Shown here: piece by piece, positions 14,364 to 28,205 of the stretch
Layout of the letters: each line of letters starts with the position of its first letter
How positions within the stretch are numbered: position 1 is the first letter of the stretch
Source of the DNA: an uncultured Clostridia bacterium
GTDB lineage: Bacteria; Bacillota; Clostridia; Oscillospirales; Acutalibacteraceae
Length of the DNA: 32,278 bases
Direction of reading: 5' to 3'
Assembly: GCA_947572385.1 (NCBI GenBank)
Contig: CANPBX010000026.1
Coordinates: 1 to 32,278 of the forward strand
Notes under the pieces: generated by a model
The model's input: the letters and a program-made list of their open reading frames with translations, nothing else
Told to the model about the DNA's origin: nothing
Databases searched by the model: none
Position numbers and translations under genes: made by a program

Positions 14364-14720
14364 CTACCCCTCCTCAAAGCGGGCCCTAAGCTTCTCCAGG
14401 GCCCGCTTCTCTATCCTGGAAACATAGGAGCGGGAGATACCCAGCTTCGCCGCCACCTCCCGTTGGGGCAGCGCCTTGCGCCCCCCGAGCCCATAGCGCA
14501 TGACTATCACATTGCGCTCCCGCGGCTCCAGGGCGGGCAGGTAGCCGTAGAGCTGCTCCGACTTCATGCGCAGGTCCAAATCGTCCACCACCGTGTCCTC
14601 GGCTGCCATGGTGTCCATAAGCGTCAGGGCACCGCCGTCCCGGTCGGATTCAATGGGCTCGTTGATGGACACATCCCGGGCGGTCTTGCGGCCCCAGCGG
14701 AAGGACATGAGGATTTCATT
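14364..14720 (-). CDS. sigK: Sigma-K, C-terminal part (spoIIIC-like half of split sigK)
   Basis: This half encodes the last 117 residues of sigma-K, from ENEILM onwards: the linker ARDVSINEPIESDRDGG and region 4 with the helix-turn-helix PQREVAAKLGISRSYVSRIEKRAL. It has no ribosome site of its own, and its frame is closed by a TGA about 15 bp before the core. The true N-terminal part is at 24,371-24,715, also on the minus strand. The five bases AATGA (14716-14720 on the plus strand as TCATT) are repeated there, and joining at this core restores the reading frame. B. subtilis has the same arrangement (spoIVCB/spoIIIC), where a serine recombinase joins the halves in the mother cell. Sigma-K directs late mother-cell genes for coat, cortex and lysis. 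Confidence 0.95.
   Translation of the reverse strand, partial: NEILMSFRWGRKTARDVSINEPIESDRDGGALTLMDTMAAEDTVVDDLDLRMKSEQLYGYLPALEPRERNVIVMRYGLGGRKALPQREVAAKLGISRSYVSRIEKRALEKLRARFEEG
14377..14412 (+). terminator. Candidate terminator of the acyltransferase gene, inside sigK
   Basis: The arms AAGCGGGCCCT (14377-14387) and AGGGCCCGCTT (14398-14408) are perfect and followed by CT-rich sequence on the plus strand. They lie in the codons for the last residues of sigma-K. Confidence 0.4.
14716..14720 (-). other. Recombination core of the skin element, sigK 3' side
   Basis: The core AATGA (minus strand) is shared with 24,384-24,388. The element side has ATGTGA (plus-strand positions 14729-14734), which becomes one arm of a dyad when the element circularises. 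AATGA is also the crossover core I recall for the B. subtilis skin element. Confidence 0.85.
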
Positions 14721-14733
14721 TGCTACCCTCACA

Positions 14734-16404
14734 TTAGAGAATCAAATCTGGGACAGTTGTATAGTCCACGTCCCCTTCCGCGCCGAACAGCACCACATGG
14801 GCCAAATTACCGTCCCAGACCACCTTCTGCACGATGGTGCGGATGGCGGCGCGCTTTTCCTCTATTGACAGCAGGTCTATGGTGGTGCGGAAACTGCTGA
14901 GCATTTGGGTGAGTATGTCAAACTCCTCCGTACTTAGTTCATTTTGAGATGTAAGGCCCTCCAACTCGGTGATTCGGGCTTGGAGGGCTTCTTTCTGTGC
15001 GGTCAGCTCGTCAATGCGCTTTGCAACCTGATTCTTGGCGGCTGCACTGTTCAGCTCGGCGAGGGAATCAACTAAGGCGGTGAGCTTGGTTTCTACGTCC
15101 GCACATTCTTTGCGGAGTGCTGCTAACCGCTCGTCATACCCGGCCCGGTCGCCGGAATAAAAGCTCCTGCTCTTTTCCAGGAGCTTCACGAAAGTTGACT
15201 TATCCTCGGTAAGGCCCTTGATTTCCTCAATCACGGCGGCGTCCAGCCGGTTGCCGCTGACGTTCTTCTGGGCGCACTGGCTCCCCTGGCTATGCTCCTT
15301 GCGCTTGCAGATGTAGGTGTATAGTGGCTGGCCGTCCGGCCCCAGGCGCTTGGAGGTCTTGGGGTACATCCGGCTGCCGCAGGAGCAGAACAGCAGGCCG
15401 GTAAGGAGGGCCTGGTTGCTCCTGGGCTTGCGGTAGGACTTGGAGCGGTTCTGCTCCAGGCTCGCCTGCACCTTCACCCACTCGCGTCCCGGTATCAGCC
15501 CCTCATGCTGGCCCACGGTGACGATCCACTCATTGACCGGCAGGTAGACAGTGGCCCGGCCCTTCTCCTGGTCAGTGCGGTTGTAGGCGAGAATACCGTG
15601 GGCGCTGTCAAAGTCGGCAGGAGAGGAGAACAGGTCGGCCTCGTTCTCTGTGAAATATTGGTATGCCTCCCGGTCGGCTATCAGGTAGACCGGGTTTTGC
15701 AGGATATTCTTGACAGCAAACCGGGTGAAGTCCCGGCCCGTCTTGGTCTTGATATTCTGGCGGCGGAGCTCGGCCTCGGTCTTGGAGAGGGAGTCGGTCT
15801 CGGCGTAGAGAGCGAAAATTTCCTTGACCAGTCCGGCCTCCTCCGGGATAAGCCGGAGCTTGCAGGCTTTGCGTGCCTTGCCGTCCACCGTGACAGTCCG
15901 GACGCTCTTGGAGGCGTAGCCGGTGGGGGTGTTGCCTCCCAGCCAGCGGCCGGTCTTGGCCAGCTCGTGCATGTTGTCCCGGATGCGCTCGGCGATGGTC
16001 TCCCGCTCCAGCTGGGAGAACACGGAGGCTATGTACATCATGGCCCGGCCCATGGGACTGCCGGTGTCGAACTGCTCCCGAATGGAGATGAAGGCCACAT
16101 TCAAGCGGCTCAGCTCCTCAATGAGCGCCGAGAAGTCGCTGATGTTGCGGCTGATACGGTCAAGGCGGTAGACCACGATGGCGCTGATCTCGTGGTTGCG
16201 GGCGGCTTTCAGCATCTGCTGGAAGGCCGGGCGGTTCAGGTTGCCGCCGGAGAAGCCCTCGTCCTCGAAGATTAGGGCGGTGCGGGCGGCCTCCTTGCCG
16301 GAGTGCAGTGCGATGTATTCGCGGCAGAGGTCGATCTGGTTGCCGATGCTTTCGCCTTTGCCTGTGAATTTGGATTTGCGGGAGTAGATGGCGGTGGGGG
16401 ACAT
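14734..16404 (-). CDS. spoIVCA: Large serine recombinase of the skin element (SpoIVCA type)
   Basis: A 556-aa large serine recombinase that should excise the element and rebuild sigK. Residues 4-150 are the resolvase catalytic domain: AIYSRKS carries the likely nucleophile S11, and VVYRLDRISRNISDF the conserved arginines. The recombinase DNA-binding domain spans about 165-275 (NTPTGYASK, NPVYLIA). A zinc ribbon follows at about 325-370 (LLFCSCGSRMY and ICKRKEHSQGSQC). A coiled coil occupies about 385-480. ATG 16404 follows AAAGGAG. The stop codon is only 13 bp from the core, so gene and site form one unit. In B. subtilis the gene is under sigma-E and SpoIIID; no clear sigma-E promoter is visible here. 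The symbol is assigned from family plus context. Confidence 0.92.
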   Translation of the reverse strand: MSPTAIYSRKSKFTGKGESIGNQIDLCREYIALHSGKEAARTALIFEDEGFSGGNLNRPAFQQMLKAARNHEISAIVVYRLDRISRNISDFSALIEELSRLNVAFISIREQFDTGSPMGRAMMYIASVFSQLERETIAERIRDNMHELAKTGRWLGGNTPTGYASKSVRTVTVDGKARKACKLRLIPEEAGLVKEIFALYAETDSLSKTEAELRRQNIKTKTGRDFTRFAVKNILQNPVYLIADREAYQYFTENEADLFSSPADFDSAHGILAYNRTDQEKGRATVYLPVNEWIVTVGQHEGLIPGREWVKVQASLEQNRSKSYRKPRSNQALLTGLLFCSCGSRMYPKTSKRLGPDGQPLYTYICKRKEHSQGSQCAQKNVSGNRLDAAVIEEIKGLTEDKSTFVKLLEKSRSFYSGDRAGYDERLAALRKECADVETKLTALVDSLAELNSAAAKNQVAKRIDELTAQKEALQARITELEGLTSQNELSTEEFDILTQMLSSFRTTIDLLSIEEKRAAIRTIVQKVVWDGNLAHVVLFGAEGDVDYTTVPDLIL

Positions 16405-16670
16405 GGGGGCTCCTTTATGATAGGCATTTTAGTATAGTATAGCATAGAGTAGCGGAGGAGTACAGAATAAATTGGAAAAGATTTTACCACCTTATAACAG
16501 AAAGAAATATAGAACATCAACTATCCACACTGTATTTCGAAGGAAGATACCCGGATCACGGAGGTGCTAAATCTCTTCGCTAGAAGTCTTGAGCGCTCAG
16601 ATTTACCTTTTAGTATGCTCAATATTTTTTTAGCGTGCGCTTGCATTTCTATTGCCATCGTTTTTGCCAA
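16405..16670. other. AT-rich spacer upstream of the recombinase
   Basis: No supported gene. Two overlapping TATACT hexamers on the minus strand (16431-16436, 16436-16441) may supply a -10 for the recombinase, but no good -35 or sigma-E box accompanies them. Confidence 0.35.
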
Positions 16671-16712
16671 AAGAAGAGAACCATCCTTGAAACCAAAGAT
16701 GGTTCTCTTCTT
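16671..16712 (-). terminator. Terminator of the GNAT gene
   Basis: Perfect 15-bp arms at 16671-16685 and 16698-16712 with a 12-nt loop. On the minus strand the hairpin is followed by TTTTGG. It begins 6 bp after the GNAT stop codon. Confidence 0.8.
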
Positions 16713-16717
16713 GTCTC

Positions 16718-17266
16718 TTAACAACAAGTGACAGAAGGCACTTGTGAAATGAATCCAGGCATAAAATAGTAGATAACTTTTTGGGGACTACATTTCAGTG
16801 GCTCGATAGGGCCATTGTATGATAACTCATGAAAACCAGAACGATAATATCCACTATAGCTGTCATACAACTTGAAACCAAATCGCTGTAGGAAAGAATC
16901 AAACTCAGTTACTCGCGGCTCTGAAACCGTAATGACGGGATGTCTGTCACCTAGTGTTATGATTGCTTTCTTCATAAACGCCGTACCAATACCGCGTCCA
17001 CGGAAGTCGTCAGGAATGTATAACGTGCAAATCTTTTTTTCATTGAGAGTTCTCTTCAAAATCATTGCACCAGCCAAACGATTGCAGTCGCCTTGAGGCG
17101 ACGCAAAGAAAACCATCCGATTGTCTCCAATGGAAGGAACAACTGTCTGATTATACCAGTGTTCAAAACCAGGATAATCGTCCCGCAGAAAAGCCAAGGA
17201 AGTACCAACCATCCGAACTGAATCCGAGTCAACTTTTCTAAGTTGCTGGATAGTTATATTGTCCAT
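16718..17266 (-). CDS. GNAT-family N-acetyltransferase
   Basis: A 182-aa protein with the GNAT fold. The acetyl-CoA motif A is IPDDFRGRGIGTAFMKKAI (residues about 84-102), and the C-terminal part has SFLQRFGFKLYDS, a typical motif B. The C-terminus is extended by about 35 residues ending in TCC. The substrate cannot be told. ATG 17266 follows GGGAGG. It has its own consensus promoter and terminator but is in line with the unknown, ASCH and kinase genes. AT-rich composition matches that group and differs from the recombinase. Confidence 0.85.
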   Translation of the reverse strand: MDNITIQQLRKVDSDSVRMVGTSLAFLRDDYPGFEHWYNQTVVPSIGDNRMVFFASPQGDCNRLAGAMILKRTLNEKKICTLYIPDDFRGRGIGTAFMKKAIITLGDRHPVITVSEPRVTEFDSFLQRFGFKLYDSYSGYYRSGFHELSYNGPIEPLKCSPQKVIYYFMPGFISQVPSVTCC

Positions 17267-17291
17267 AAGTAGAGCCTCCCTTCCATATTAC

Positions 17292-17320
17292 ATTATACAC
17301 CGTTGAGCCAATATTGTCAA
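17292..17320 (-). promoter_or_regulatory. Consensus promoter of the GNAT gene
   Basis: TTGACA (17315-17320), 17 bp and TATAAT (17292-17297) on the minus strand: perfect hexamers and spacing, so the GNAT is likely expressed in vegetative cells independently of the genes before it. Confidence 0.8.
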
Positions 17321-17342
17321 GAAGGTAATATATTATATGCTT

Positions 17343-18404
17343 TTAGGTAGGCGGTGTCAAGAGAAATTTGCAAATCAGTTGCCAAATAATGTCTTTCAAC
17401 GCCAAAATACCACTTCCTAAGAGTGATCCCACTGCACCAAGTCCGAGAGTAATAAGAACATACCGCCATATAACCTGCTGCTCAACTCTGAATTTAGCGA
17501 AAAGTTCACTGGAATCGATATATTTCGAGTTACTCTCTGTCTTGGGTTTGTCAGCATAATGGTAGGCCACCAAATCTTCTGTATCAAGTCCATCGACATA
17601 GTCTTTCCAAACATCTTGTTCGATTTTCCTGACTTTGAAATTTGTGTTGGATACATCGACGTATGCCTTCGTCATTAAGAAGAAATGAAGTTGTTGAACC
17701 GGAACGGGATGATTCAGTTTTTCGTGGAAACGCTCGACGAGAGTATTATGAAGTCCGCGAATGTTATGGTAACGAAAATCAATCATATATGTAGTATTAA
17801 ATAGCCCTTGGATGACTCCGGTCGGCGGCTTATATCGATGAATCAGAAAATCAAGGGGTTGGTTTTTTATGCGAAATCGGAAATAGTAGTCCGATTCCTG
17901 CTCAGATTCATCCATATTACTTAGTATACGACCTGTTTTTATCTCGAGTATGGTTCCTTCACCAAAGGCTTCGAGACTTATGTCATTTACGATATCCAAT
18001 TGATAGACTTTAAAATGATCACCCTTCGATGTACAGCGCACATCAATTTCTTTCTTGTTAGCAGAAATCGTAACGTGATGGCTATCATTGAATAGAGCAT
18101 CAGCCAGCAAAGCGTTTTCAAGAAATTTTCTCCCAAGGTCCTCGATACATTGCATTTTTTTCGCTTCAGTTATAGAAAAAGGCAGGAAGAAAAATAATGC
18201 CTGTGCTTTTGAAAGTCTCTTCACCCGGAATCCAATATCCAAATACGGGTAATCAGTGCCTTGTAAGTGTTCCTTCTCTTTTTTCCAACCACATTCACAC
18301 CATAAATTGAAATGCACATGCGCAGCCAATTCACCAGACTCATCTGACACAGATACACCAGATTCATTCTCACGTTCTTTATACCAAAAAGCAAAACTCT
18401 CCAT
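17343..18404 (-). CDS. Unrecognised 353-aa protein with a C-terminal membrane segment
   Basis: I do not recognise a family. The protein starts MESFAFWYKERENESG. It is largely soluble and mixed alpha/beta in appearance for about 310 residues, with HFNLWCECGW near residue 35 and FFFLPFSITEAKK near 80. Around residues 300-350 it has one or two hydrophobic segments (VIWRYVLITLGLGAVGSLLGSGIL, then a shorter one before the end). So it is probably a cytoplasmic domain tethered to the membrane at its C-terminus. ATG 18404 follows GAGGTG and lies 10 bp after the ASCH stop codon; a longer in-frame start at 18485 lies inside the ASCH gene and is less likely. AT-rich, like its neighbours. The linked genes and topology would suit an effector, but no function can be claimed. 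Confidence 0.75.
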   Translation of the reverse strand: MESFAFWYKERENESGVSVSDESGELAAHVHFNLWCECGWKKEKEHLQGTDYPYLDIGFRVKRLSKAQALFFFLPFSITEAKKMQCIEDLGRKFLENALLADALFNDSHHVTISANKKEIDVRCTSKGDHFKVYQLDIVNDISLEAFGEGTILEIKTGRILSNMDESEQESDYYFRFRIKNQPLDFLIHRYKPPTGVIQGLFNTTYMIDFRYHNIRGLHNTLVERFHEKLNHPVPVQQLHFFLMTKAYVDVSNTNFKVRKIEQDVWKDYVDGLDTEDLVAYHYADKPKTESNSKYIDSSELFAKFRVEQQVIWRYVLITLGLGAVGSLLGSGILALKDIIWQLICKFLLTPPT

Positions 18405-18414
18405 TATTCTCACC

Positions 18415-18825
18415 TCATAGCCTATCACAGTCCGGCACACAGATTTCATGGTCAGTATTGATGTATATAAATGATTGCGGCGCATGATCTATGCCATAAT
18501 CCAGAAGTTCCCTGGGACAATTGAATTTTATTACTTCTCCAATCTCATATGCGTATGCTATCTTAGAATTGGAAAAGTATCTCATGTATTCATCATAACT
18601 GATTCCTGCACCTGATTTAGTCATGTTCCATAAAGCATCTGGAGAAGCGCTTAATTGGCTGATGATCTTCGTATATGCAATTACTTTACTGACAGGAGCA
18701 GTACAATAGATAACCATTATGGAGGGTTTCTTACGAGCCATTTTTCTGCGGTATTCATATGTTTTCTCGCCAGATAATATCTTCTCAATGTATTTAGGCT
18801 TGATCGATATAAGAATAGCTGTCAC
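18415..18825 (-). CDS. ASCH-domain protein
   Basis: A 136-aa single-domain protein. The N-terminus ILISIKPKYIEKILSGEKTYEYRR is the typical ASCH signature (IKPxYxxxIxxGxKxxExRR). Further on come IYCTAPVSKVIAYTKI and HAPQSFIYIN, also seen in this subgroup. ASCH domains have a PUA-like fold and bind RNA. Some are RNases or N4-acetylcytidine amidohydrolases (YqfB), so a nucleic-acid or nucleoside substrate is likely, but the activity is unknown. The start is GTG 18825, 7 bases after GGAGG; a nearby ATG is out of frame. It is the second gene of the kinase-ASCH-unknown operon. Confidence 0.82.
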   Translation of the reverse strand: MTAILISIKPKYIEKILSGEKTYEYRRKMARKKPSIMVIYCTAPVSKVIAYTKIISQLSASPDALWNMTKSGAGISYDEYMRYFSNSKIAYAYEIGEVIKFNCPRELLDYGIDHAPQSFIYINTDHEICVPDCDRL

Positions 18826-18858
18826 GCATGTACCTCCGTCGAATAGTGATATAAGTTT

Positions 18859-19404
18859 TCAATCAAAAATGATGCCGTTTTTCGTAAGTATAGAAACGCA
18901 ATGCGCTGAATCGTTTGCGTCATAAGACATATAATGGACATCAAGCGGACACTCTATGAGATTCGCAATATGTCTAGCAACAGTTTGTTCTTCTTTTTGC
19001 AGGCATACAACCTGTTCATAGTCGTAGAATTTCTTATCCCTTGACAGTAAATTGCTAATTATCTGGTTTGTATCAGCGTCCAAAAGCAGTATTTGTTTTA
19101 TATGTAGCTTTTCAAACACCCCATATGGCAACACCTCAACATGATTCTGTTCATTAAAAATGCAAAAATGTCCTGCAAGCAAAATTATTGGATGCTTTTT
19201 CAGTTTTAGTTCGACCTCAGCAACAAGTACTTCTTGATTGTATACCGCATCCTTTACGGCCTTGCTTTGTTTGTAATCTTCGCCATTTATCTTGCTTATT
19301 AAATCTCCAGCAGAGAAAGATGGAATGTTTAAGGAATTGCCTAACGACCTACACAAGGTACTCTTTCCTACGCCATAAACTCCTGCGATAAAAATAGTTT
19401 CCAT
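18859..19404 (-). CDS. P-loop nucleotide kinase-like ATPase
   Basis: A 181-aa protein with Walker A GVYGVGKST (K14) at the extreme N-terminus. An adenylate-kinase-like layout follows: a SAGDLISK segment, IILLAGHFCIF as a possible Walker B, and QILLLDADTNQI before an Arg-containing lid (LLSRDKKFYD). The acceptor could be a nucleotide or another small molecule and cannot be read from sequence. ATG 19404 is chosen because it follows AGAGGA; an upstream ATG at 19422 overlaps that site. It heads the AT-rich operon, 33 bp before the ASCH gene. Confidence 0.75.
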   Translation of the reverse strand: METIFIAGVYGVGKSTLCRSLGNSLNIPSFSAGDLISKINGEDYKQSKAVKDAVYNQEVLVAEVELKLKKHPIILLAGHFCIFNEQNHVEVLPYGVFEKLHIKQILLLDADTNQIISNLLSRDKKFYDYEQVVCLQKEEQTVARHIANLIECPLDVHYMSYDANDSAHCVSILTKNGIIFD

Positions 19405-19514
19405 TTTCTGTCCTCTCTTCATTGTAATGACATTATAGTTTCATTTTATCAAATTATATCGCTTTGTCTATAGTGAAAATAGGTGTTAGACACAAACTGC
19501 ACTATTTATAAGTA

Positions 19515-19542
19515 ATTATACCATATTCGCAGGATATTTCAA
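19515..19542 (-). promoter_or_regulatory. Promoter of the kinase-ASCH-unknown operon
   Basis: TTGAAA (19537-19542), 16 bp and TATAAT (19515-19520) on the minus strand, giving a leader of about 100 nt. Confidence 0.6.
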
Positions 19543-19601
19543 CTACGCAATGGGGATTTGAGGGAAAATGAACTTATAGACAAAAAACATTCTGTAAGGA
19601 T

Positions 19602-19824
19602 GGTCACGGACATTTTGTCCGCGACCATTTTGTTGCAACGTCGCCGAAACAGTTTCGCCCACGTTGTTTTCTGGTGGTGGCGTAATCCGCAACCACCACC
19701 CCGCAAAATCAAAACGACAAATTGCCGTTCTGGTCAACGACTTTTTATCGCTGAGCAAATTACTGTCTTGACGTGACGGAAATTATTTCCGTCACGTTCT
19801 AAAACCGACAAAATGACGGTTTTA
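19602..19824. repeat. Cluster of inverted repeats downstream of the XRE repressor
   Basis: At least five hairpins lie in 220 bp of non-coding DNA: 19602-19626 (GGTC.CGGAC/GTCCG.GACC), 19636-19666 (CAACGT..ACGTTG around CGAAAC/GTTTCG), 19673-19697 (GGTGGT.GCG/CGC.ACCACC), 19771-19797 (13-bp arms around one base) and 19800-19824 (TAAAACCG/CGGTTTTA). The last two probably terminate the XRE gene; the others are unexplained. Confidence 0.6.
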
Positions 19825-19841
19825 GCTCAGAGATATGATTT

Positions 19842-20450
19842 TCAATCTTTAACTTGCTCAGCTTTTAGTGTTTCGTAGATACTATCAGAAACGCTTTTCT
19901 TCTCTCCTATTATTTCAGTTTCCCAATCTCGAATAACATTCCCCAGGCTGTTTGTAGCGAGAAAGTGTTCAATGAAAACGGCGTTCAGCAATTTGTTTTT
20001 CTCTCTTCTTTCCATTTTTTCGCCCTCAACGATCTTCTGTACTTCCAGGCTAAAGCGGTATCTCAGCATACTTTTCATCACCTCACGGAACTCTTCACTG
20101 GCAAAGAGCGCGTCCAATGTTCCGGGATAGTCTTTTGAAAATTCTCCAAATTCTCGCAAAAACGCAACACTTTCCTCGCTCATATTGAGAAACTTACACA
20201 CCCCAGCCAAATCCATATCAAGGCTCTTGGCCCCGCCCTGCCGCCCCACCAGCCAGTCACAGGACACATCGAAATACTCTGCTATTTGCAGCAGCTTGTC
20301 AGCGTTCGGCTGTCCTATACCCATGGTGTATTGGCTAACTGCCTGTCGTGATATACCCAGCTCCCTTGCAACCGCTGTGATGGTAGTAGGTTTTTCTTCA
20401 ATTAGCTGTCTGAGCCGAGTAGGGAATATGTCATTATATTTGTCTGACAA
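19842..20450 (-). CDS. XRE-family repressor of the element
   Basis: A 202-aa regulator. The N-terminal Cro/C1-type helix-turn-helix covers about residues 8-65 (RLRQLIEEKPTTITAVARELGISRQAVSQYTMGIGQPNADKLL). A helical C-terminal part of about 130 residues probably serves dimerisation. The start is taken as TTG 20450, 8 bases after AAGGGGG, because it yields the typical beginning SDKYNDIFPTRL. ATGs at 20513 and 20522 lack a ribosome site. The leader is about 85 nt. A 29-bp palindrome overlaps the -10 boxes of both this gene and the divergent primase operon, so it likely represses both, as in phage switches. Confidence 0.85.
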   Translation of the reverse strand: MSDKYNDIFPTRLRQLIEEKPTTITAVARELGISRQAVSQYTMGIGQPNADKLLQIAEYFDVSCDWLVGRQGGAKSLDMDLAGVCKFLNMSEESVAFLREFGEFSKDYPGTLDALFASEEFREVMKSMLRYRFSLEVQKIVEGEKMERREKNKLLNAVFIEHFLATNSLGNVIRDWETEIIGEKKSVSDSIYETLKAEQVKD

Positions 20451-20512
20451 GAAATCTACCCCCTTTTGTAGCGTGCGATTTTCTTGCGATTTTGTAAATG
20501 TAGAAAGAAACA

Positions 20513-20541
20513 TTGACTTCATCTTTTTCTTGCTATATACT
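20513..20541 (+). promoter_or_regulatory. Rightward promoter of the primase operon
   Basis: TTGACT (20513-20518), 17 bp and TATACT (20536-20541). The -10 lies inside the operator palindrome. Confidence 0.75.
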
Positions 20542-20555
20542 GAGTATAGCAAGAA
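20527..20555. promoter_or_regulatory. Operator palindrome of the XRE switch
   Basis: Perfect 11-bp arms TTCTTGCTATA (20527-20537) and TATAGCAAGAA (20545-20555) with a 7-bp centre. It covers the -10 elements of both diverging promoters, so one bound repressor could control both directions. Confidence 0.75.
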
Positions 20556-20571
20556 ATACAGCCACTGTCAA
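20543..20571 (-). promoter_or_regulatory. Leftward promoter of the XRE repressor gene
   Basis: TTGACA (20566-20571), 17 bp and TATACT (20543-20548) on the minus strand. It overlaps the operator and the rightward promoter. Confidence 0.75.
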
Positions 20572-20597
20572 GCGGCTATCACAAAGGAGGAATTTCT

Positions 20598-20756
20598 ATA
20601 GCAGAAACAAAAGCCATTCAAGAGCTGGCGCGTGAGGCCCAGCGAGAGTACAAGCGCCAATGGCGCAAGAAAAATCCCGATAAAGTGAGGGAGATGAACC
20701 GCCGCTATTGGGAGAAAAAGGCCTGGGAGAAGGCAAAGGAGGGGGTGAAGCGATGA
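20598..20756 (+). CDS. 52-aa basic protein with an ATA start
   Basis: A small, highly charged helical protein: AETKAIQELAREAQREYKRQ, then WRKKNPDKVREMNRRYWEKK and a basic end. The only initiation context is AAAGGAGGAATTTCT followed by ATA, with 7 bases between AGGAGG and ATA. No in-frame ATG, GTG or TTG lies between the upstream stop codon and this point. So it either starts at ATA or is a start-codon mutant of an ATG gene. It is the first gene after the rightward promoter and overlaps the primase gene by ATGA. DNA or RNA binding is likely from charge; a role as excision factor or regulator is conceivable but unsupported. Confidence 0.65.
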   Translation: MAETKAIQELAREAQREYKRQWRKKNPDKVREMNRRYWEKKAWEKAKEGVKR

Positions 20757-22186
20757 CAAATTTCTCTAACTGTCTGGTTAAATTCGCGCCTGAAGCTAAC
20801 TCCCGATACACAACGACCGACATCGGCAATAGCAATCTGTTCGCCGATTATTACCGTGACGTCGCCCGCTACATCCCTGAGCGGAAGATGTGGTACATCT
20901 TTACCGGCAAGCTCTGGAAGCCGGACCCCTGCAACCTCCAAGCCATGGAGCTATGTAAAAAACTTGCGGATGAGCTGGTGATTTATGCCCTCTCCCTACC
21001 CGAGGGCCGCGAACGCAACGAGTACCGCAAGGCCGTGGAGCGGTGGCAGATTCGCCACTACCGGGAGATAATTCTGAAAGACGCGATGGGCATTTACCCG
21101 GCAAAACTCAGCGACTTTGATAGCAAGCCAGACCTGTTCAACTGCACAAATGGCACGATGGATTTACAAATGAGGGTGTTCCATGAACACAACCCAGTCG
21201 ATATGCTGGCGACCATTTCCGGTGTGAAGTGCGACCCCGAAGCCCGCTCAGAGCTGTGGGAGCGCACCATCCGGGACGTTATGCAAGGTGACGTTGACCT
21301 TGCCGCCTACCTCCAAAAAGCCCTGGGCTACGGCCTGACAGGGGACACCAGCGAGGAGTGCTTCTTCCTCCTATACGGCCCCACCACCCGCAACGGCAAG
21401 GGCACCGTGATGGAAACATACATGAAAATGCTGGGCGGCTACGGCAAGACGGCACGGCCTGAGACCATCGCTTTGCGGCAAAATTACAACAGCTCCGGGC
21501 CCTCTGAGGACATAGCAAAGTTGGCAGGAGCGAGAGCCGTGAACATATCCGAGCCGGACAAGCAGATGGTTTTGAGCGCAGCGCTGGTGAAAACCCTGAC
21601 CGGCAACGACACCATGAGCGCCCGATTCCTCAACGAAAACAGCTTTGAGTTCAATCCGCAATTCAAACTTTTCATCAACACCAATCACCTGCCAAAGGCA
21701 AATGATGTGACGATTTTCAGCTCCGGGAGGGTGAAAGTGCTGCCATTTAACCGCCACTTTGAACCGGAAGAGCAGGATAAATCCCTCAAAAAGCGGCTAG
21801 AGAAGGAGCTCTCAGGAGTGCTGAACTGGTGTCTGGATGGTCTCTGGCTCATGCATGAAACAGGGTTTGATCCGCCGGAATCGGTGCAAAATGATACCGC
21901 AAAGTATCAGCATGACAGCGACAAGCTGACAAGATTCGTTGAGGAAATGCTCACGCCCGACCCAGACGGTGAAGTCAGAACCGAAGATGTTTACCGTGAA
22001 TACCGGGACTGGTGTACGCAAAACGGTCAGTATGCGGATGCTTACCCCACATTCAAACAGGGTATGGAAGGGTATGCTCAAATCAGAAAAAAGCGGCCAA
22101 GAGGTGCCGGAAAAGCTGTCAATCCGACAGCTATGTTCTGTGGAGTACAGCTTAAAATGGGTGGCCCTTACTTTCAGCAAACATGA
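20753..22186 (+). CDS. P4-family phage/plasmid primase-helicase (helicase part)
   Basis: A 477-aa replication protein. Residues about 40-170 form a D5_N-like region (KMWYIFTGKLWKPD; DLFNCTNGTMDL). An SF3 helicase domain follows, with Walker A GPTTRNGKGT (K216), ANISEPDKQ-like Walker B region (AVNISEPDKQM) and sensor FKLFINTNHLPKAND near residue 305. The C-terminal part (about 395-477) resembles the P4/primase C-terminal winged helix (DVYREYRDWCTQNGQ). The N-terminal AEP primase domain of full-length relatives (about 750 aa) is absent, so it may act as a helicase with another primase. Start ATG 20753 overlaps the 52-aa gene stop. Presence on a skin element points to a once self-replicating mobile ancestor. 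Confidence 0.88.
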   Translation: MTNFSNCLVKFAPEANSRYTTTDIGNSNLFADYYRDVARYIPERKMWYIFTGKLWKPDPCNLQAMELCKKLADELVIYALSLPEGRERNEYRKAVERWQIRHYREIILKDAMGIYPAKLSDFDSKPDLFNCTNGTMDLQMRVFHEHNPVDMLATISGVKCDPEARSELWERTIRDVMQGDVDLAAYLQKALGYGLTGDTSEECFFLLYGPTTRNGKGTVMETYMKMLGGYGKTARPETIALRQNYNSSGPSEDIAKLAGARAVNISEPDKQMVLSAALVKTLTGNDTMSARFLNENSFEFNPQFKLFINTNHLPKANDVTIFSSGRVKVLPFNRHFEPEEQDKSLKKRLEKELSGVLNWCLDGLWLMHETGFDPPESVQNDTAKYQHDSDKLTRFVEEMLTPDPDGEVRTEDVYREYRDWCTQNGQYADAYPTFKQGMEGYAQIRKKRPRGAGKAVNPTAMFCGVQLKMGGPYFQQT

Positions 22187-22188
22187 TG

Positions 22189-22275
22189 GTGTTCCGAGTG
22201 TTCCAGGCAAAACATTACCTCCCACGCGAAAGCAACTATTTTTACCCCTATATTCCGCTGGAACACCTGGAACAC
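22189..22275. repeat. Paired heptamer repeats, candidate replication origin
   Basis: GTGTTCC occurs twice, 9 bp apart (22189-22195, 22198-22204). Its complement GGAACAC occurs twice, 9 bp apart (22260-22266, 22269-22275). The two pairs face each other across 55 bp containing an AT-rich run. Within this, GTGTTCCAGG and CCTGGAACAC are perfect 10-bp arms. The layout directly after a helicase gene suggests an origin or initiator-binding site. Confidence 0.5.
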
Positions 22276-22298
22276 GCAAGAGCCTTGACGGCTGAAAT

Positions 22299-22427
22299 GG
22301 CCCCGTAGGGGCCGGAGTTTTGAAACCGAGAATTTTCGAGGTTTCAGAACGAGCCAGCATCGCATTTGTCCAGACACCCGTACGGACACGTGTGCGGACA
22401 ATGCAGCTTGGACAGGGAGAACCCTGT
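22299..22427. other. Hairpin-rich region upstream of mobC, candidate oriT
   Basis: Several inverted repeats precede the relaxosome gene: GGCCCC/GGGGCC (22299-22313), TGAAACC/GGTTTCA (22321-22346), TTGTCC/GGACAA (22366-22401) and ACAGGG/CCCTGT (22412-22427). Transfer origins are usually hairpin-rich and adjacent to mobC. No nic site of a known family was recognised. Confidence 0.4.
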
Positions 22428-22472
22428 AACCCCGATTTTTAGAGTTATAACATAATGGAAAGGATGATTTTT

Positions 22473-22820
22473 ATAGGCAATCAAAAGAAATTTGACATGA
22501 GGATGACAGAGCAGGACTACAAGCGGCTTACCCGCAAAGCACGCAAATGCGGGCTGACAAGGTCAGGCTATATTCGACTCTTGATCCACGACTACAACCC
22601 CCGCGAGGCTCCGCCCGCTGATTACTTCGGTATGACACGGGAGCTAAAGGAGATTGGCGGCAACATGAACCAGATTGCGTTCATGGCGAACGCCACCGGG
22701 CTTGTGGACGAGGGACGGTACTATGAAGAGGTAACGCATCTTCGGGATGCACTTCGGCGGATTGAGCAAGCTGTTACTGGAGTGAAAGATGCTCAAGTTG
22801 ACTTTGATGAAGAAAGTTAA
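22473..22820 (+). CDS. MobC-like relaxosome accessory protein
   Basis: A protein of about 115 aa of the bacterial mobilisation (MobC) family. It has the ribbon-helix-helix-like N-terminus KFDMRMTEQDYKRLTRKA, then CGLTRSGYIRLLI and the signature LKEIGGNMNQIAFMANATG. MobC binds oriT and helps the relaxase nick. The start is the odd point: the good ribosome site GGAAAGGATGA is followed at normal spacing by ATA (22473). The in-frame ATGs at 22455 and 22464 lie before or inside that site. If the ATGs are used the protein gains 3-6 residues. No relaxase gene follows, so MobC here could only act with a relaxase supplied from elsewhere, or is a relic. Confidence 0.82.
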   Translation: MGNQKKFDMRMTEQDYKRLTRKARKCGLTRSGYIRLLIHDYNPREAPPADYFGMTRELKEIGGNMNQIAFMANATGLVDEGRYYEEVTHLRDALRRIEQAVTGVKDAQVDFDEES

Positions 22821-22892
22821 GACACGGCACCATGAACAAGCATATTGTACAAGTCATCAGACATATGAGTAGCTGAAACGGAGGTGCCGCCT

Positions 22893-23120
22893 TTGCCCAA
22901 AAGCCAGCCCATCAAGCTCGTCATGCACTACCCCAAGACCGAGGAAGGAATACGCCAGTTGTCCCAGCAGGTTGCCGAAGCTCATGCGGAGGCAGTGATA
23001 CATAAAATCAGCAGCACGAGAAGCTCTGTCAAAGAAAAAATCGCGATGATGCAGGCCGTAGCGAATGCCGTACAAACAGAACGGCAAATCTCAAAAGAAC
23101 AAAATGAAATAGGCCGTTGA
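22893..23120 (+). CDS. Small conserved mobile-element protein, unknown function
   Basis: A 75-aa protein beginning PKSQPIKLVMHYPKTEEG and continuing QLSQQVAEAHAEAVIHKI. I recall similar short proteins (HYPxTxEG...VAEAHAxAV pattern) in Firmicute conjugative and mobilisable elements, but no function. TTG 22893 is preferred, 8 bases after CGGAGG; a GTG at 22884 overlaps the ribosome site. It lies where a relaxase gene would be expected after mobC. A terminator follows. Confidence 0.65.
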   Translation: MPKSQPIKLVMHYPKTEEGIRQLSQQVAEAHAEAVIHKISSTRSSVKEKIAMMQAVANAVQTERQISKEQNEIGR

Positions 23121-23180
23121 CCTATCCCAAAGAAGAAAATTCCAACAAACTATGTTGTTAAAAAATAAATACACAAAAAC

Positions 23181-23216
23181 AGTCCCGGAGGCTTTCATTC
23201 TCTCCGGGACTTCATT
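23181..23216. terminator. Bidirectional terminator between the mob region and the zeta gene
   Basis: The 10-bp arms AGTCCCGGAG (23181-23190) and CTCCGGGACT (23202-23211) have an A-rich flank on the left and a T-rich flank on the right. It separates the converging 75-aa and zeta-like genes. Confidence 0.8.
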
Positions 23217-23217
23217 T

Positions 23218-23772
23218 TTATTGCAGAATTTTTACCAAGCTCTTGAGCCACTCAGGCGGGCTCTGAGTGATAGCCAGCAGCTCCCCATTCTCATACCGCG
23301 CCACCTCCACAAAGCCGTTGCCGTTGTCAAAGAACCGGGCCTCGTCACAGTAGGTCAGCACCTTCACAAGAGCATCGAACCGCCCTGCATACCGCCGCTC
23401 CACGTCCCGCTGAGGGATATTGTGCCCGCCCTTGCGGACCCGGTTCTCAATGCGCGAAAGGCTTTCCTCAAGGCTGTCCAGGCCGATATAGTAGAGCCGG
23501 ATGGAATAACCTAACTCTTTCGCCCGCCGGATAGTGCGCTCCGTCCGCGCTCCGGCAAGGGTAGTCTCTTGAGTAAAGTTCAGACCCTTCTCAAGGCACT
23601 CGTTTATCTTCTCGACCGCCGCCCTGCCGCCTGCCCCATAGCCGCCCAACTTGGCCGACAGCTTGTCCGGGTCGATGATGATGCCCAGGTCGTCACGCTC
23701 CGCTTTCAGCGCGCCGGTAAGGCTGGACTTGCCACAGCCATTCACGCCGCCGATAATGGTGTATAGTTTCAC
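23218..23772 (-). CDS. Zeta-toxin-like P-loop kinase
   Basis: A 184-aa protein of the zeta toxin/AAA_33-like group. Walker A is GGVNGCGKSS (K15). Next come an IIDPDKL segment (like the zeta DxD substrate region), the loop NFTQETTLAG (zeta-like Glu-Thr-Thr), and the C-terminal signature GGHNIPQRDVERRY with basic lid residues. Zeta toxins phosphorylate UDP-N-acetylglucosamine and block wall synthesis; whether this small member is toxic is unknown. The start is GTG 23772 after GGGGG. It follows a two-HTH XRE gene by 35 bp, the same order as PezA-PezT, so a toxin-antitoxin pair is plausible. A terminator ends the operon. Confidence 0.78.
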   Translation of the reverse strand: MKLYTIIGGVNGCGKSSLTGALKAERDDLGIIIDPDKLSAKLGGYGAGGRAAVEKINECLEKGLNFTQETTLAGARTERTIRRAKELGYSIRLYYIGLDSLEESLSRIENRVRKGGHNIPQRDVERRYAGRFDALVKVLTYCDEARFFDNGNGFVEVARYENGELLAITQSPPEWLKSLVKILQ

Positions 23773-23807
23773 GATGTGTACCCCCGTTTGTGCTTCATTA
23801 TCTAAAA

Positions 23808-24374
23808 TTATAGCACATCACGCTCGGAATAGAAAGGGGAAAGATACTCTTTTAGCTTCTCCCAGCTCTTTTTACTGACCTTTTTCCGTCCCATCTCCCA
23901 ATCGCGCATAGATTTTCCCCCAGTACCTACCAGCTTGGCAAATGCTTTTCGGCTCAGCCCCAGCCTCTCCCGAGCGCACCGTATCTGGTCAGACGGCCCG
24001 TCATAAAGAAACCGGCTGTACTCATCCAGCAAGTCCTCTACCAGCACCTCATATAGCTCTGCCAGCTTGTCCATCGTCAGAGCGGGATACTCTTGGCAAG
24101 AGCCCCGCTCCATTTCCTCATATTGACTCAGGGGAATCCCGAGCTGCTGGGCCACCTCTTTCTGCATCAGCCCCAGCCGGTACCGGCACCAGCGTAGCCG
24201 CTCCGGGACTGTGCGCAGATCCTCGTACTTGCAGGAATACCTCTGAGCCTCTGAAACCTTCCGCACCTTTCCCAGCCGGAAAGAGAGCGCATACAGCGGC
24301 GCAAGCCTCCCATCCAGGCCCATCAAATATAGCCCATTCCCCAGGGACACTCTTGTCCGCCAAGGAGAAGTCAT
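23808..24374 (-). CDS. XRE-family regulator with two HTH domains, next to the core
   Basis: A protein of up to 188 aa. After an N-terminal segment (YLMGLDGRLAPLYALSFRLG) come two Cro/C1 HTH domains. The first is RLRWCRYRLGLMQKEVAQQLGIPLSQYEEMERG (about 60-110). The second is IRCARERLGLSRKAFAKLVGTGGKSMRDWEMGRKKVSKKSWE (about 130-175). Similar two-HTH proteins recur on Clostridial mobile elements. ATG 24374 overlaps the stop of the interrupted sigK N-terminal half (ATGA), though ATG 24323 is an alternative. No promoter of its own is evident, so it may be read from the sigK promoter when the element is integrated. It precedes the zeta-like gene and may be its antitoxin. Confidence 0.78.
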   Translation of the reverse strand: MTSPWRTRVSLGNGLYLMGLDGRLAPLYALSFRLGKVRKVSEAQRYSCKYEDLRTVPERLRWCRYRLGLMQKEVAQQLGIPLSQYEEMERGSCQEYPALTMDKLAELYEVLVEDLLDEYSRFLYDGPSDQIRCARERLGLSRKAFAKLVGTGGKSMRDWEMGRKKVSKKSWEKLKEYLSPFYSERDVL

Positions 24375-24715
24375 GTGATAATATCATTCTCAATACACCT
24401 CGAAGCATAGCTCGACAGCCTTATCCCCTTATCCGGGTCAAAGGTGTCCACTGCCTTAATAAGGCCGATCGTCCCGATGGAGATAAGGTCCTCCTGGTCG
24501 CTGCCGCCATAGTATTTTTTGACGATATGGGCCACCAGCCGCAGGTTATGCTCTATGAGCCGCTGCCGCGCCGCCTTATCGCCCTTTGCCATCTCGTCCA
24601 GGGCCCGGCGCTCTGCCGCCGCGCTCAGCGCCCGGGGGAAGCTCCCAGTCCCCGCCACGTGCAGCAGCAGGTAGAACGCCTGGGAGAGCATATCTATGAG
24701 ATTTGCTAAAAACAT
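24371..24715 (-). CDS. sigK: Pro-sigma-K, N-terminal part (spoIVCB-like half of split sigK)
   Basis: This half encodes residues 1-110 of pro-sigma-K, then four element-encoded codons (DIIT) and a stop. It contains sigma region 2: RLIEHNLRLVAHIVKKYY, then EDLISIGTIGLIKAVDTFDPDKG and SYASRCIEN. The first 20 or so residues (MFLANLIDMLSQAFYLLL) are hydrophobic and align with the B. subtilis pro-sequence removed by SpoIVFB, before the conserved FPRAL. So this is a pro-protein, unlike C. difficile sigma-K, which lacks a pro-sequence. ATG 24715 is chosen, 7 bases after AGAGGAG; a GTG at 24724 overlaps that site. A sigma-E-like promoter lies 40-65 bp upstream. Joined at AATGA to 14,720, the gene encodes 227 aa. 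Confidence 0.95.
   Translation of the reverse strand: MFLANLIDMLSQAFYLLLHVAGTGSFPRALSAAAERRALDEMAKGDKAARQRLIEHNLRLVAHIVKKYYGGSDQEDLISIGTIGLIKAVDTFDPDKGIRLSSYASRCIENDIIT
24384..24388 (-). other. Recombination core of the skin element, sigK 5' side
   Basis: AATGA on the minus strand, matching 14,716-14,720. The element side carries TCACAT (plus-strand 24373-24378), the partner of ATGTGA at the other end. In the excised circle these two arms would flank an 18-bp centre symmetric about the AA of AATGA, as expected for a serine-recombinase site. Confidence 0.85.
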
Positions 24716-26459: not shown

Positions 26460-28205
26460 ATGGACAAACTAAAAATGCAAACGCCTGACCTGGCCCAAAC
26501 CAATATCGAGAAGCTTGCCGCCCTGTTTCCCGCCTGTATTACCGAGGCCCGGGGTGAGGACGGCAGGCTGAAAAAGGCCGTCAACTTTGACCTGCTGCGG
26601 CAAATGCTGTCTGATGAGGTGCTTGAGGGCGGGGAGGCCTATGAATTTACCTGGGTCGGCAAGAAAGCGGCTTTCGCAGAGGCAAATAGGTCCATCCGCA
26701 AGACTCTGCGGCCCTGCCCGGCAGAGAGCGCAGACTGGGATGCCACCGAAAACCTCTACATTGAGGGCGACAACCTGGATGTGCTGAAGCTCCTGCAGGA
26801 GAGCTATCTGGGCAAGGTAAAGATGATCTATATTGACCCGCCCTATAACACAGGCAGCGACTTTATCTATCAGGATGATTTTGCTATGGGCCGCAGGGAG
26901 TACAGCGAGGGATCAGGGCACGTGGACAGTAACGGCGACCGGATGTTCCGCAACACCGACTCAAATGGGCGGTTCCACTCCGACTGGTGCAGTATGATGT
27001 ATTCGCGGCTGCTGCTGGCAAGGAACCTGCTCTCTGATGACGGAAGCATTTTTATCAGCATTGACTTTAACGAGGTGGCCAGCCTGAGAAAAATAATGGA
27101 CGAAGTTTTCGGCCCGAAGAACTTCCAGCGGGAGATCATCTGGCGTATCGGGTGGCTTTCAGGCTATAAAACAAAAGCCCCCAATTTCATCAGAAACCAC
27201 GACACCATCCTGTTTTACTCCAAAAACTCCGCTAAGCTTGATTTTATTAAGAAATACATAGAAAATCGGGATTTCAAGCCCTTGGTCAAAAAGGGTACGG
27301 CGCTGACAGCTAAGCTCTCCTCCCTTGGGCTGGACGCAAAGGGACAGAAGGAGCTGCTGCATTTTATAAATCATGAAAACCGCCCTGAGCGCTACCCTAT
27401 GGAGGATACCTGGAACGCCAATGAATATGACGACCTTAACAGCATTGCCATAGTTTCATTTTCCGGGGAAAAAATATCCAAGCTGCTTGAAACCGGGCAG
27501 GACTTCAAGGGCCAGAAGTCCCTCGGGCTAATGCTGCGGCTGCTTGAGTCCGTGACCCGCCCGGGAGATATCGTCCTGGATTTCTTTTCCGGCACTGCCA
27601 CCACCGCCCACGCAGTCATGCAGCTAAACGCAAAGGACGGCGGGGATCGGAAATTTATCATGGTGCAGCTGCCGGAGCCCTGCGGTGAAAACAGCGAGGC
27701 ATATAGATCCGGCTACAAGACTATCTGTGAGATTGGCAAGGAGCGTATCCGCCGGGCCGCGGATAAGATAGCCGCAGACAGCCCCGGCAGTAAATTTGAC
27801 GGCGGGTTCCGCGTTTTCAAGCTGGACGACACCAATATGACCGATGTGTACTACTCCGCCGGTGAATACACCCAGGCAATGCTTGACCAGATGGTGGACA
27901 ACATCAAGCCCGGCCGCTCGGATCTGGATCTGCTGTTCAGCTGTCTGCTGGATTGGGGGCTGCCAATTTCCATGCCATACACCTCAGAGCAGCTTGAAGG
28001 CTGCACCGTCCACACTTATAACGGGGGGGATCTGATCGCGTGCTTTAATGAGAACATCCCCGACGCAGTTATTAAGGAGATCGCAAGGCGCCAGCCCCTG
28101 CGGGCAGTGTTCCGGGACAGCAGCTTTGCAGACAGCCCGGCTAAAATCAATGTGGGCGAGATCTTTAAGATGCTGGCCCCCCGTACCAGAGTGAAGGTAA
28201 TATGA
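26460..28205 (+). CDS. mod: Type III restriction-modification system methyltransferase
   Basis: A 581-aa beta-class N6-adenine methyltransferase. Motif IV DPPYNTG (D126-Y129) comes first, and the AdoMet motif I DFFSGTATTAHAVM (D374-S377) is C-terminal, the beta-class order. Between them (about 215-345) lies the variable target-recognition region. Length and order fit the Mod subunit, which recognises an asymmetric site, methylates one strand, and is also needed for restriction. ATG 26460 follows GGAGG. res follows after 53 bp, so they form one operon. No phase-variable simple repeat is seen in the gene. The target site cannot be read from sequence. Confidence 0.92.
   Translation: MDKLKMQTPDLAQTNIEKLAALFPACITEARGEDGRLKKAVNFDLLRQMLSDEVLEGGEAYEFTWVGKKAAFAEANRSIRKTLRPCPAESADWDATENLYIEGDNLDVLKLLQESYLGKVKMIYIDPPYNTGSDFIYQDDFAMGRREYSEGSGHVDSNGDRMFRNTDSNGRFHSDWCSMMYSRLLLARNLLSDDGSIFISIDFNEVASLRKIMDEVFGPKNFQREIIWRIGWLSGYKTKAPNFIRNHDTILFYSKNSAKLDFIKKYIENRDFKPLVKKGTALTAKLSSLGLDAKGQKELLHFINHENRPERYPMEDTWNANEYDDLNSIAIVSFSGEKISKLLETGQDFKGQKSLGLMLRLLESVTRPGDIVLDFFSGTATTAHAVMQLNAKDGGDRKFIMVQLPEPCGENSEAYRSGYKTICEIGKERIRRAADKIAADSPGSKFDGGFRVFKLDDTNMTDVYYSAGEYTQAMLDQMVDNIKPGRSDLDLLFSCLLDWGLPISMPYTSEQLEGCTVHTYNGGDLIACFNENIPDAVIKEIARRQPLRAVFRDSSFADSPAKINVGEIFKMLAPRTRVKVI

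What the first reader, a model, noticed from the sequence alone, without database searches (positions are those of the whole stretch)
14364..24715. A 9.67-kb skin element splits sigK
Two halves of sigma-K lie 9.7 kb apart on the same strand, each ending at AATGA. Joining them gives an exact in-frame RCIENEILM, as in B. subtilis sigma-K. A SpoIVCA-type recombinase lies at one end. This is a developmentally excisable element, smaller than the B. subtilis and C. difficile examples, with unfamiliar cargo.
Basis: partly seen in the sequence, partly recalled or inferred. Interest (0 to 1): 0.9.

Follow-up and report, generated by a model that had tools for sequence, protein, structure and literature searches.

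The report
Split sporulation gene with excisable insert
In this gut bacterium the gene for the last spore-building sigma factor is cut in two by a 9.7-kb mobile insert that carries its own cutting enzyme, and a second sporulation regulator gene in the same genome is split in the same way, so the bacterium probably has to cut and rejoin its own DNA twice to finish a spore.

Summary
In an Acutalibacter genome sigK lies in two same-strand pieces, 9668 bp apart between AATGA copies (24388-24384, 14720-14716). Joined, they give an in-frame 684-nt sigK. No intact sigK was found in the genome.

The insert is a skin element by every sequence test, laid out like the C. difficile one (recombinase directly upstream of the 3' half), not the B. 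subtilis one. Its recombinase family targets this codon across gut Clostridia: 74 of 80 relatives sit at the same sigK cut. A conserved 56-78-aa protein was in 13 of 13 complete relatives, often behind a sigma-E-like promoter. It is my candidate for the excision factor.

The element moves between species: 92% identical to G020's just inside the junction, while sigK is 66-74%.

Beyond the finding:
- sigK has two further cut sites, each with its own recombinase family. Some genomes fill several; Anaeromassilibacillus An200 has sigK in four pieces.
- In the window's own genome spoIIID is also split by a recombinase element and stays under purifying selection.

So this is a known mechanism in a new setting. 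Excision itself was not observed here.

The parts
24384..24715 (-). 5' piece of sigK (ATG 24715; pro-sequence-like hydrophobic N-terminus, sigma-70 region 2); its frame closes inside the element at 24371
24384..24388 (-). AATGA copy at the first junction; the part shared in register by the elements compared is the AA of the AAT codon
   Evidence: AA followed by other sequence at an off-target site in L114
24754..24780 (-). sigma-E-like promoter of sigK (AAATAT-13-CATACACA)
   Evidence: score 14.5, none of 30 block shuffles as high
14364..14720 (-). 3' piece of sigK (sigma-70 region 4), starting at AATGA 14720-14716
14721..14735 (-). element-side arm of the second junction (AATGTGAGGGTAGCA); imperfect inverted repeat of the arm after the first junction (TGATATTATCACATG)
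   Evidence: AGGATAGCA arm kept at 8 or more of 9 positions in 70 of 74 relatives
14734..16404 (-). large serine recombinase, 556 aa (resolvase, recombinase and zinc-ribbon domains)
22884..23120 (+). conserved small protein (start GTG 22884 or TTG 22893), candidate recombination directionality factor
22840..22869 (+). sigma-E-like promoter of the small protein (GCATAT-16-CATATGAG), a weak match in this genome
16718..17266 (-). GNAT acetyltransferase (cargo)
17343..18485 (-). 380-aa protein, no family hit (cargo)
18415..18825 (-). ASCH-domain protein, PADLOC candidate family PDC-M11B (E 1.3e-40) (cargo)
18859..19422 (-). P-loop nucleotide kinase-like protein (cargo)
19842..20552 (-). XRE-type repressor (cargo)
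20708..22186 (+). P4/D5-type primase-helicase (mobile-element replication gene)
22455..22820 (+). MobC/NikA-like mobilisation accessory protein; no relaxase among the 10 element proteins scanned
23218..23772 (-). zeta-toxin-like P-loop kinase (cargo)
23808..24374 (-). double-HTH XRE regulator whose start overlaps the end of the 5' sigK frame

Best explanation
A mobile sigK-intervening (skin) element. Shown from sequence: a large serine recombinase element is inserted at a short core containing AA, in the AAT codon of RCIENEILM. [quoted passage not shown] That protein binds the recombinase and turns it from integration to excision. The 9668-bp circle leaves, the two sigK pieces are joined in frame, and pro-sigma-K is made; the spore keeps the element because the mother cell dies. 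In this genome the step probably depends on an earlier rearrangement, since spoIIID, the regulator that acts with sigma-E on sigK and on skin excision in B. subtilis and C. difficile (passages of PMC5025042), is also in two pieces. The element is held in place because losing its excision genes would block sporulation, and it can still move between species.
For: In-frame join and no other sigK. Recombinase with all three domains. 74 of 80 recombinase relatives (59-92% id) have the sigK 3' piece downstream, all 74 cut at AAYGA of the same codon, recombinase within 400 bp in 71 of 74. In an order sample 26 of 30 fetched relatives (window included) sit at sigK; the 4 misses are 41-42% id. Small protein: 13 of 13 loci holding both sigK pieces; 24 of 28 genomes with a recombinase of 45% id or more against 5 of 366 others, Fisher 1.5e-29 (lists compared by hand, the two 394-genome draws taken as the same). 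Its best sigma-E-like promoter lies at a fixed place in 16 of 25 thinned loci (24 of 36 unthinned), 9% expected, p 1e-11. SpoIVA and a sigE-like gene intact. sigK of G000 against sister G010: dN 0.007, dS 0.084. Element 92% identical to G020 just inside the first junction while the sigK pieces are 66% and 74% and the upstream flank 60%.
Against: No reads or experiments; excision was not seen. The recombinase promoter region shows no sigma-E signal (9 of 73 loci at p 0.05 or less; window p about 1.0), so control would have to come from the small protein, whose role is inferred from association. The window's -10 for it (CATATGAG) is a weak match, and in 12 of 36 loci, the sister G010 and G009 among them, the best promoter hit lies elsewhere. 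The small protein is missing from 4 of 28 recombinase genomes and present in 5 of 366 others. A relative can insert outside sigK (L114). An overlapping-frame ORF at the recombinase start (16272-16520) as rival excision factor is not excluded.
Confidence: 0.92

Rival explanations
1. A recent or decaying mobile insertion that has simply killed sigK; the strain no longer forms spores and the gene is a pseudogene.
For: Relatives with intact sigK are common (18 of 29 genus genomes). G284 shows that decay can occur: truncated recombinase and no small protein in the stretch fetched.
Against: Both sigK pieces and both spoIIID pieces are open and conserved: dN 0.007 against dS 0.084 for sigK; 6 synonymous and 0 nonsynonymous changes in spoIIID between two species sharing the split. 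SpoIVA and a sigE-like gene are intact. The recombinase is full length.
Confidence: 0.05
2. An ordinary integrative mobilizable element that uses sigK only as an integration site, with excision controlled by its own transfer cycle rather than by sporulation.
For: P4/D5 primase and MobC/NikA-like genes. Exchange between species at the same site. One relative inserted elsewhere (L114).
Against: No relaxase among the 10 element proteins scanned. The conserved small protein carries a sigma-E-like promoter at a fixed distance in most loci. Such an element would leave its host unable to sporulate most of the time (reasoning).
Confidence: 0.03

Closest known systems
Clostridioides difficile skinCd (CD1231 recombinase, CD1234 directionality factor; PMC5025042: abstract, section 13 and passages seen)
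   Same: Recombinase directly upstream of the 3' sigK moiety; small separate directionality factor (72 aa there, 56-78 aa here) under sigma-E; recombinase itself not under sigma-E; att sites with inverted repeats
   Different: [quoted passage not shown] whether the codon and the recombinase are the same could not be tested (no C. difficile sequence in hand)
Bacillus subtilis skin (SpoIVCA, Skr; passages of PMC6957869 and PMC4191935; PMC10745906 sections 11 and 15)
   Same: sigK split with AATGA at the recombination site; excised in the mother cell; pro-sigma-K
   Different: 48 kb prophage-like element; spoIVCA lies next to the 5' fragment in the opposite direction; Skr overlaps the 5' end of spoIVCA, whereas the small protein here is a separate distant gene
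Bacillus cereus group sigK insertions (PMC10745906, sections 11 and 15 read, passages seen)
   Same: Different insertion positions in sigK (nt 195 and nt 423); the one at nt 195 is close to my site B by codon number; island IV carries restriction-modification rather than phage genes; excision shown there
   Different: One insertion per gene in the strains described in the sections read
Multiple interruption elements in cyanobacterial nif genes (PMC4874684, passages seen)
   Same: Several recombinase elements in one developmental gene (four in one nifD)
   Different: Heterocyst genes, unrelated hosts
gin in gerE, yin in yabG, SPbeta in spsM, Alicyclobacillus prophage in sigK (PMC5595907, PMC10747680, PMC4191935, PMC13141910, passages seen)
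   Same: Recombinase elements inside mother-cell sporulation genes
   Different: Other target genes or one insertion; spoIIID is not among the interrupted genes named in the passages seen

Membership tests
sigK-intervening (skin) element | Splits sigK so that a precise join restores the frame | tested here: met
sigK-intervening (skin) element | Carries its own site-specific recombinase | tested here: met
   recombinase stop lies 13 bp before the second AATGA
sigK-intervening (skin) element | Short identical core with inverted-repeat arms at both ends | tested here: met
   arms imperfect in the window
sigK-intervening (skin) element | No other functional sigK in the genome | tested here: met
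   (own genome, 95% complete)
[quoted passage not shown]
   no reads or cultures
sigK-intervening (skin) element | Directionality factor under sigma-E control | tested here: inconclusive
   conserved small protein with sigma-E-like promoter; function not shown
B. subtilis-type skin | Recombinase next to the 5' fragment, opposite orientation; prophage structural genes | tested here: not met
   (10 element proteins scanned against PHROGs: integrase, regulators, primase)
C. difficile-type skin | Recombinase directly upstream of the 3' moiety, same strand | tested here: met
   position of CD1231 taken from passages of PMC5025042
C. difficile-type skin | Same insertion codon and an orthologous recombinase | not tested
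   no C. difficile sequence fetched; the passages seen give no sequence
integrative mobilizable element | Own relaxase | tested here: not met
   none among the 10 element proteins scanned; MobC/NikA-like accessory only

The most novel reading that the evidence does not exclude
In this lineage the mother-cell programme is gated by a relay of DNA rearrangements. A 7.2-kb recombinase element must first leave spoIIID. SpoIIID with sigma-E then drives sigK and the skin excision factor, and the 9.7-kb skin leaves sigK. More widely, sigK of gut Clostridia is a shared docking gene with three separate recombinase families at three codons, stacked up to three deep, so that some species must perform several excisions to build one sigma factor.
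Probability: 0.5. Interest if true: 0.8.

Novelty: new variant of a known kind. Interest (0 to 1): 0.62.

Why it matters
Skin elements are known from a handful of species. Here one recombinase family is found cutting sigK at the same codon across gut Clostridia, including Faecalibacterium and Gemmiger genomes. The stacked cases and the split spoIIID make an open question testable: do such elements merely hide in genes that only a dying cell needs, or do they add timing steps to development? The small conserved protein gives a concrete candidate for the excision switch, with many natural variants to compare.

Tried and rejected
Chance or assembly artefact: rejected (same split in named isolates and a one-contig genome). 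Excision factor overlapping the recombinase start, as skr does in B. subtilis: small ORFs there clustered in up to 70 of 73 loci, but the clusters are largely the recombinase's own frame or its shadow frames; an overlapping ORF is not excluded, I followed the separate small protein instead. Sigma-E promoter in front of the recombinase: no enrichment (9 of 73). Phage origin: the best-ranked of 856 matching records among 50,697 phage records is 38.6% identical (Terrisporobacter phage). Of 52 IMG/VR loci 4 hold a sigK piece (L257-L260); the other 48 show none in the stretch held, but several of those contigs end within or just after the recombinase, so this is a weak negative. Is the spoIIID recombinase dedicated to spoIIID? 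Four IMG/VR relatives at 70% show no significant spoIIID match within 3 kb, so probably not. Site-B relatives: of 30 loci fetched (of 44 matches) the 9 with 55% id or more are at sigK, the 21 with 49% or less are not. The C87 pattern match first taken as the An200 tail was an unrelated frame; the C78 match is the tail. A script that checked the loci had an empty query and was rerun. I did not tile the rest of the genome to look for other split genes.
Full report
1. Observation. On the minus strand, sigK starts at ATG 24715 and runs in frame to ...RCIEN, then enters the element and stops at 24371. The rest of sigK begins at AATGA 14720 in ...GTAGCAAATGAAATCC and ends at 14364. The AATGA copies lie at 24388-24384 and 14720-14716, 9668 bp apart. 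Joined in a script they give a 684-nt open frame with RCIENEILM. Pfam calls sigma-70 region 2 in the first piece and region 4 in the second. A profile search of the own genome (2.39 Mb, 84 contigs, 95% complete) found these two pieces and no intact sigK.

2. Organism. The recombinase is 92% and 89% identical to those of Acutalibacter sp. 1XD8-33 and 1XD8-36, whose contig lengths equal those of G020 and G010. The genus assignment rests on that and on the kinship table.

3. The genus. Of 29 genus genomes (window plus 28 relatives) 18 have a near full-length sigK match, 6 are split as in the window (G000, G009, G010, G020, G022, and G024 with only the 5' piece on a short contig), 4 are split elsewhere, and 1 (G002) gave no sigK. 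Complete elements at the window's site (site A) span 9.5 to 26.8 kb with cargo that differs in part. The split in G022 lies in a one-contig genome.

4. A dedicated recombinase family. Of the 80 best relatives of the recombinase in GTDB contigs (80 kept of 494 found), 74 have the sigK 3' piece downstream, all 74 starting at AAYGA of the same codon; the recombinase is within 400 bp in 71 of 74, and the arm AGGATAGCA is kept at 8 or more of 9 positions in 70 of 74. Three more (L051, L109, L115) show only the 5' piece. L095 ends at the core on a contig edge. L114 has the same arm followed by a different sequence after AA, an off-target insertion that points to AA as the crossover. L125 shows nothing. 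Hosts named in the records include Faecalibacterium, Gemmiger, Mediterraneibacter, Holdemania and Christensenellaceae. In 394 genomes of the order, 32 matched at E 1e-100 or better; 30 loci were fetched, 26 hold a sigK piece beside the recombinase (window included), and the 4 misses are 41-42% identical.

5. A candidate excision factor. A 56-78-aa protein (window 22884-23120) occurs in 13 of 13 loci that hold both sigK pieces, and in 6 of 6 Acutalibacter and An200 site-A elements examined in full (two of these six, G020 and An200, are also among the 13). It was found in 32 of all 80 loci, most of which hold only part of their element. In the order sample it is in 24 of 28 genomes with a recombinase of 45% identity or more and in 5 of 366 others (lists compared by hand, the two draws of 394 taken as the same; Fisher 1.5e-29). 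It matches no PHROG or PADLOC family, and its one Pfam hit (E 0.023) is under the cut-off. In 25 loci thinned for similarity the best sigma-E-like promoter upstream lies 50-66 nt before a conserved motif in 16, against 9% expected (p 1e-11; 24 of 36 unthinned). I used a matrix built from the recalled B. subtilis consensus. Taken one by one, 16 of 38 regions beat their shuffles at p 0.05 or less. Upstream of the recombinase there is no such signal (9 of 73); upstream of sigK 7 of 16, the window among them. This is the C. difficile logic: recombinase not under sigma-E, excision factor under sigma-E and SpoIIID (PMC5025042: abstract, section 13 and passages seen). A conserved RGACA box sits in the promoter region in 13 of 25; it resembles the SpoIIID consensus as I recall it, untested.

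6. Mobility. Window against G020: sigK pieces 66% and 74% identical in DNA and upstream flank 60%, but 92% over 399 bases just inside the first junction and 91% over the 1700 bases before the second. Window against its closer sister G010: sigK 96% and 99%, yet only 75% just inside the first junction and 89% before the second (blocks). So the element has been exchanged between species at an occupied site. It carries a P4/D5 primase and a MobC/NikA-like gene but no relaxase in the 10 proteins scanned, and cargo including a candidate defence protein (PDC-M11B, E 1.3e-40), XRE regulators and two P-loop kinases.

7. Two more docking sites. In G003, G013, G021 and G023 sigK is cut at about codon 64 (VK|KYY, within the lysine codons; site B). 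The site-B recombinases of G013, G023 and An200 are 61-81% identical to that of G003, and those of G003, G013 and G023 are 25-27% identical to the window's over part of their length; G021's was not seen in the stretch fetched. In G013 and G021 the gene is cut again near its 3' end (SYV|SRIEK, core ATGT; site C), with a third recombinase family. In the order sample the site-B family sits at sigK in all 9 fetched loci of 55% identity or more and in 0 of 21 at 49% or less; 14 further matches were not fetched. The site-C family sits at a sigK junction in 19 of 24 loci: 3 by the 5' side, 16 by the short 3' tail, found by a motif and in 2 of them also by alignment; of the misses one is at a contig edge and four are 41% identical or less. 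A B. cereus group insertion at nt 195 of sigK (PMC10745906, section 11 read) is near site B by codon number.

8. Stacked splits. Anaeromassilibacillus sp. An200 has sites A, B and C filled: pieces at C56:66162-66362, 72382-72555 and 78776-79093 and a tail at C78:23403, each cut with its own recombinase beside it. G284 also shows all three, but its site-A recombinase is truncated and no small protein was found in the 27 kb fetched, so it may be decaying. Two sites are filled in G013, G021, G192, G417, G131, G137 and G109 (in G109 from the bounds of the piece at its site-C recombinase and an unfetched site-A fragment on the same contig). Several elements in one developmental gene are known from cyanobacterial nifD (PMC4874684, passages seen). 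No listing or passage I saw reports this for sigK, but none of those searches asked for it by name and the library lacks most subscription papers.

9. spoIIID is split too. Checking SpoIIID in 14 genomes gave 11 with one nearly full match, 1 without a match (G067) and 2 split: the window's genome (C12:59352-59236 and 51997-51857) and its sister 1XD8-36. The cut is STVH|KDVSQ with shared CATA, and a 515-aa large serine recombinase ends just before the second junction. The elements are about 7.2 and 9.0 kb; the two long aligned blocks, flank included, are 94% and 96% identical. Between the two species the joined spoIIID has 6 synonymous and 0 nonsynonymous changes, so it is probably still used. 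No member of the small-protein family was found in this element, so its excision factor is unknown. Relatives of this recombinase at 70% are not beside spoIIID. The listing (10 papers with at least 3 of the terms) has no title naming spoIIID as an interrupted gene; I had seen passages of six of the ten for other questions, and they name other genes.

10. Mechanism. Shown by sequence: the split, the recombinase, the core and arms, the conserved small protein and its promoter signal, selection on sigK and spoIIID, exchange of elements. Inferred: sporulation-specific excision, the role of the small protein, and the order spoIIID then sigK. SpoIVA is present over its cut-off in all 14 genomes checked, including two Faecalibacterium and two Gemmiger, so sigK is likely to be needed.

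11. Verdict. The finding is right and the element is a skin element by all sequence tests. As a single case it is a new member of a known kind; with the conserved excision-factor candidate, the interspecies exchange, the three docking sites and the split spoIIID it is a new variant worth testing.

Noticed in passing
own genome G000:C12:51857-59352 (L251); sister in L252: spoIIID split by a 7.2-kb (9.0-kb in the sister) large-serine-recombinase element, no intact copy found
   Followed up: partly
L129, L136 (Anaeromassilibacillus sp. An200): sigK in four pieces with three recombinase elements
   Followed up: partly
L254-L256 (G284): sigK in four pieces, but the site-A recombinase is truncated and no small protein was found in the stretch fetched: possible decay
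   Followed up: partly
L114, 11624-11780: element with the same arm GATAGCA followed by AA and non-sigK sequence: an off-target insertion
   Followed up: no
L095, contig end after 10559: contig ends exactly at GATAGCAA, the crossover core, as if two forms were in the sample
   Followed up: no
L051/L194 and L260: site-A family elements with the recombinase beside the 5' piece, as if inserted in the reverse orientation; L260 is from a 38.8-kb contig classed as viral
   Followed up: no
L085, L091 (Faecalibacterium), L053, L082 (Gemmiger): genera usually regarded as non-sporulating (recalled) hold SpoIVA, a sigE-like gene and a split sigK
   Followed up: partly
window 26460-28205 and 28259-31312: adjacent genes that read by eye like a methylase and a helicase/nuclease subunit of a restriction system (not searched)
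   Followed up: no
L045, L046, L048: site-B elements seem to carry housekeeping-like genes (read by eye, not searched) instead of phage or plasmid genes
   Followed up: no
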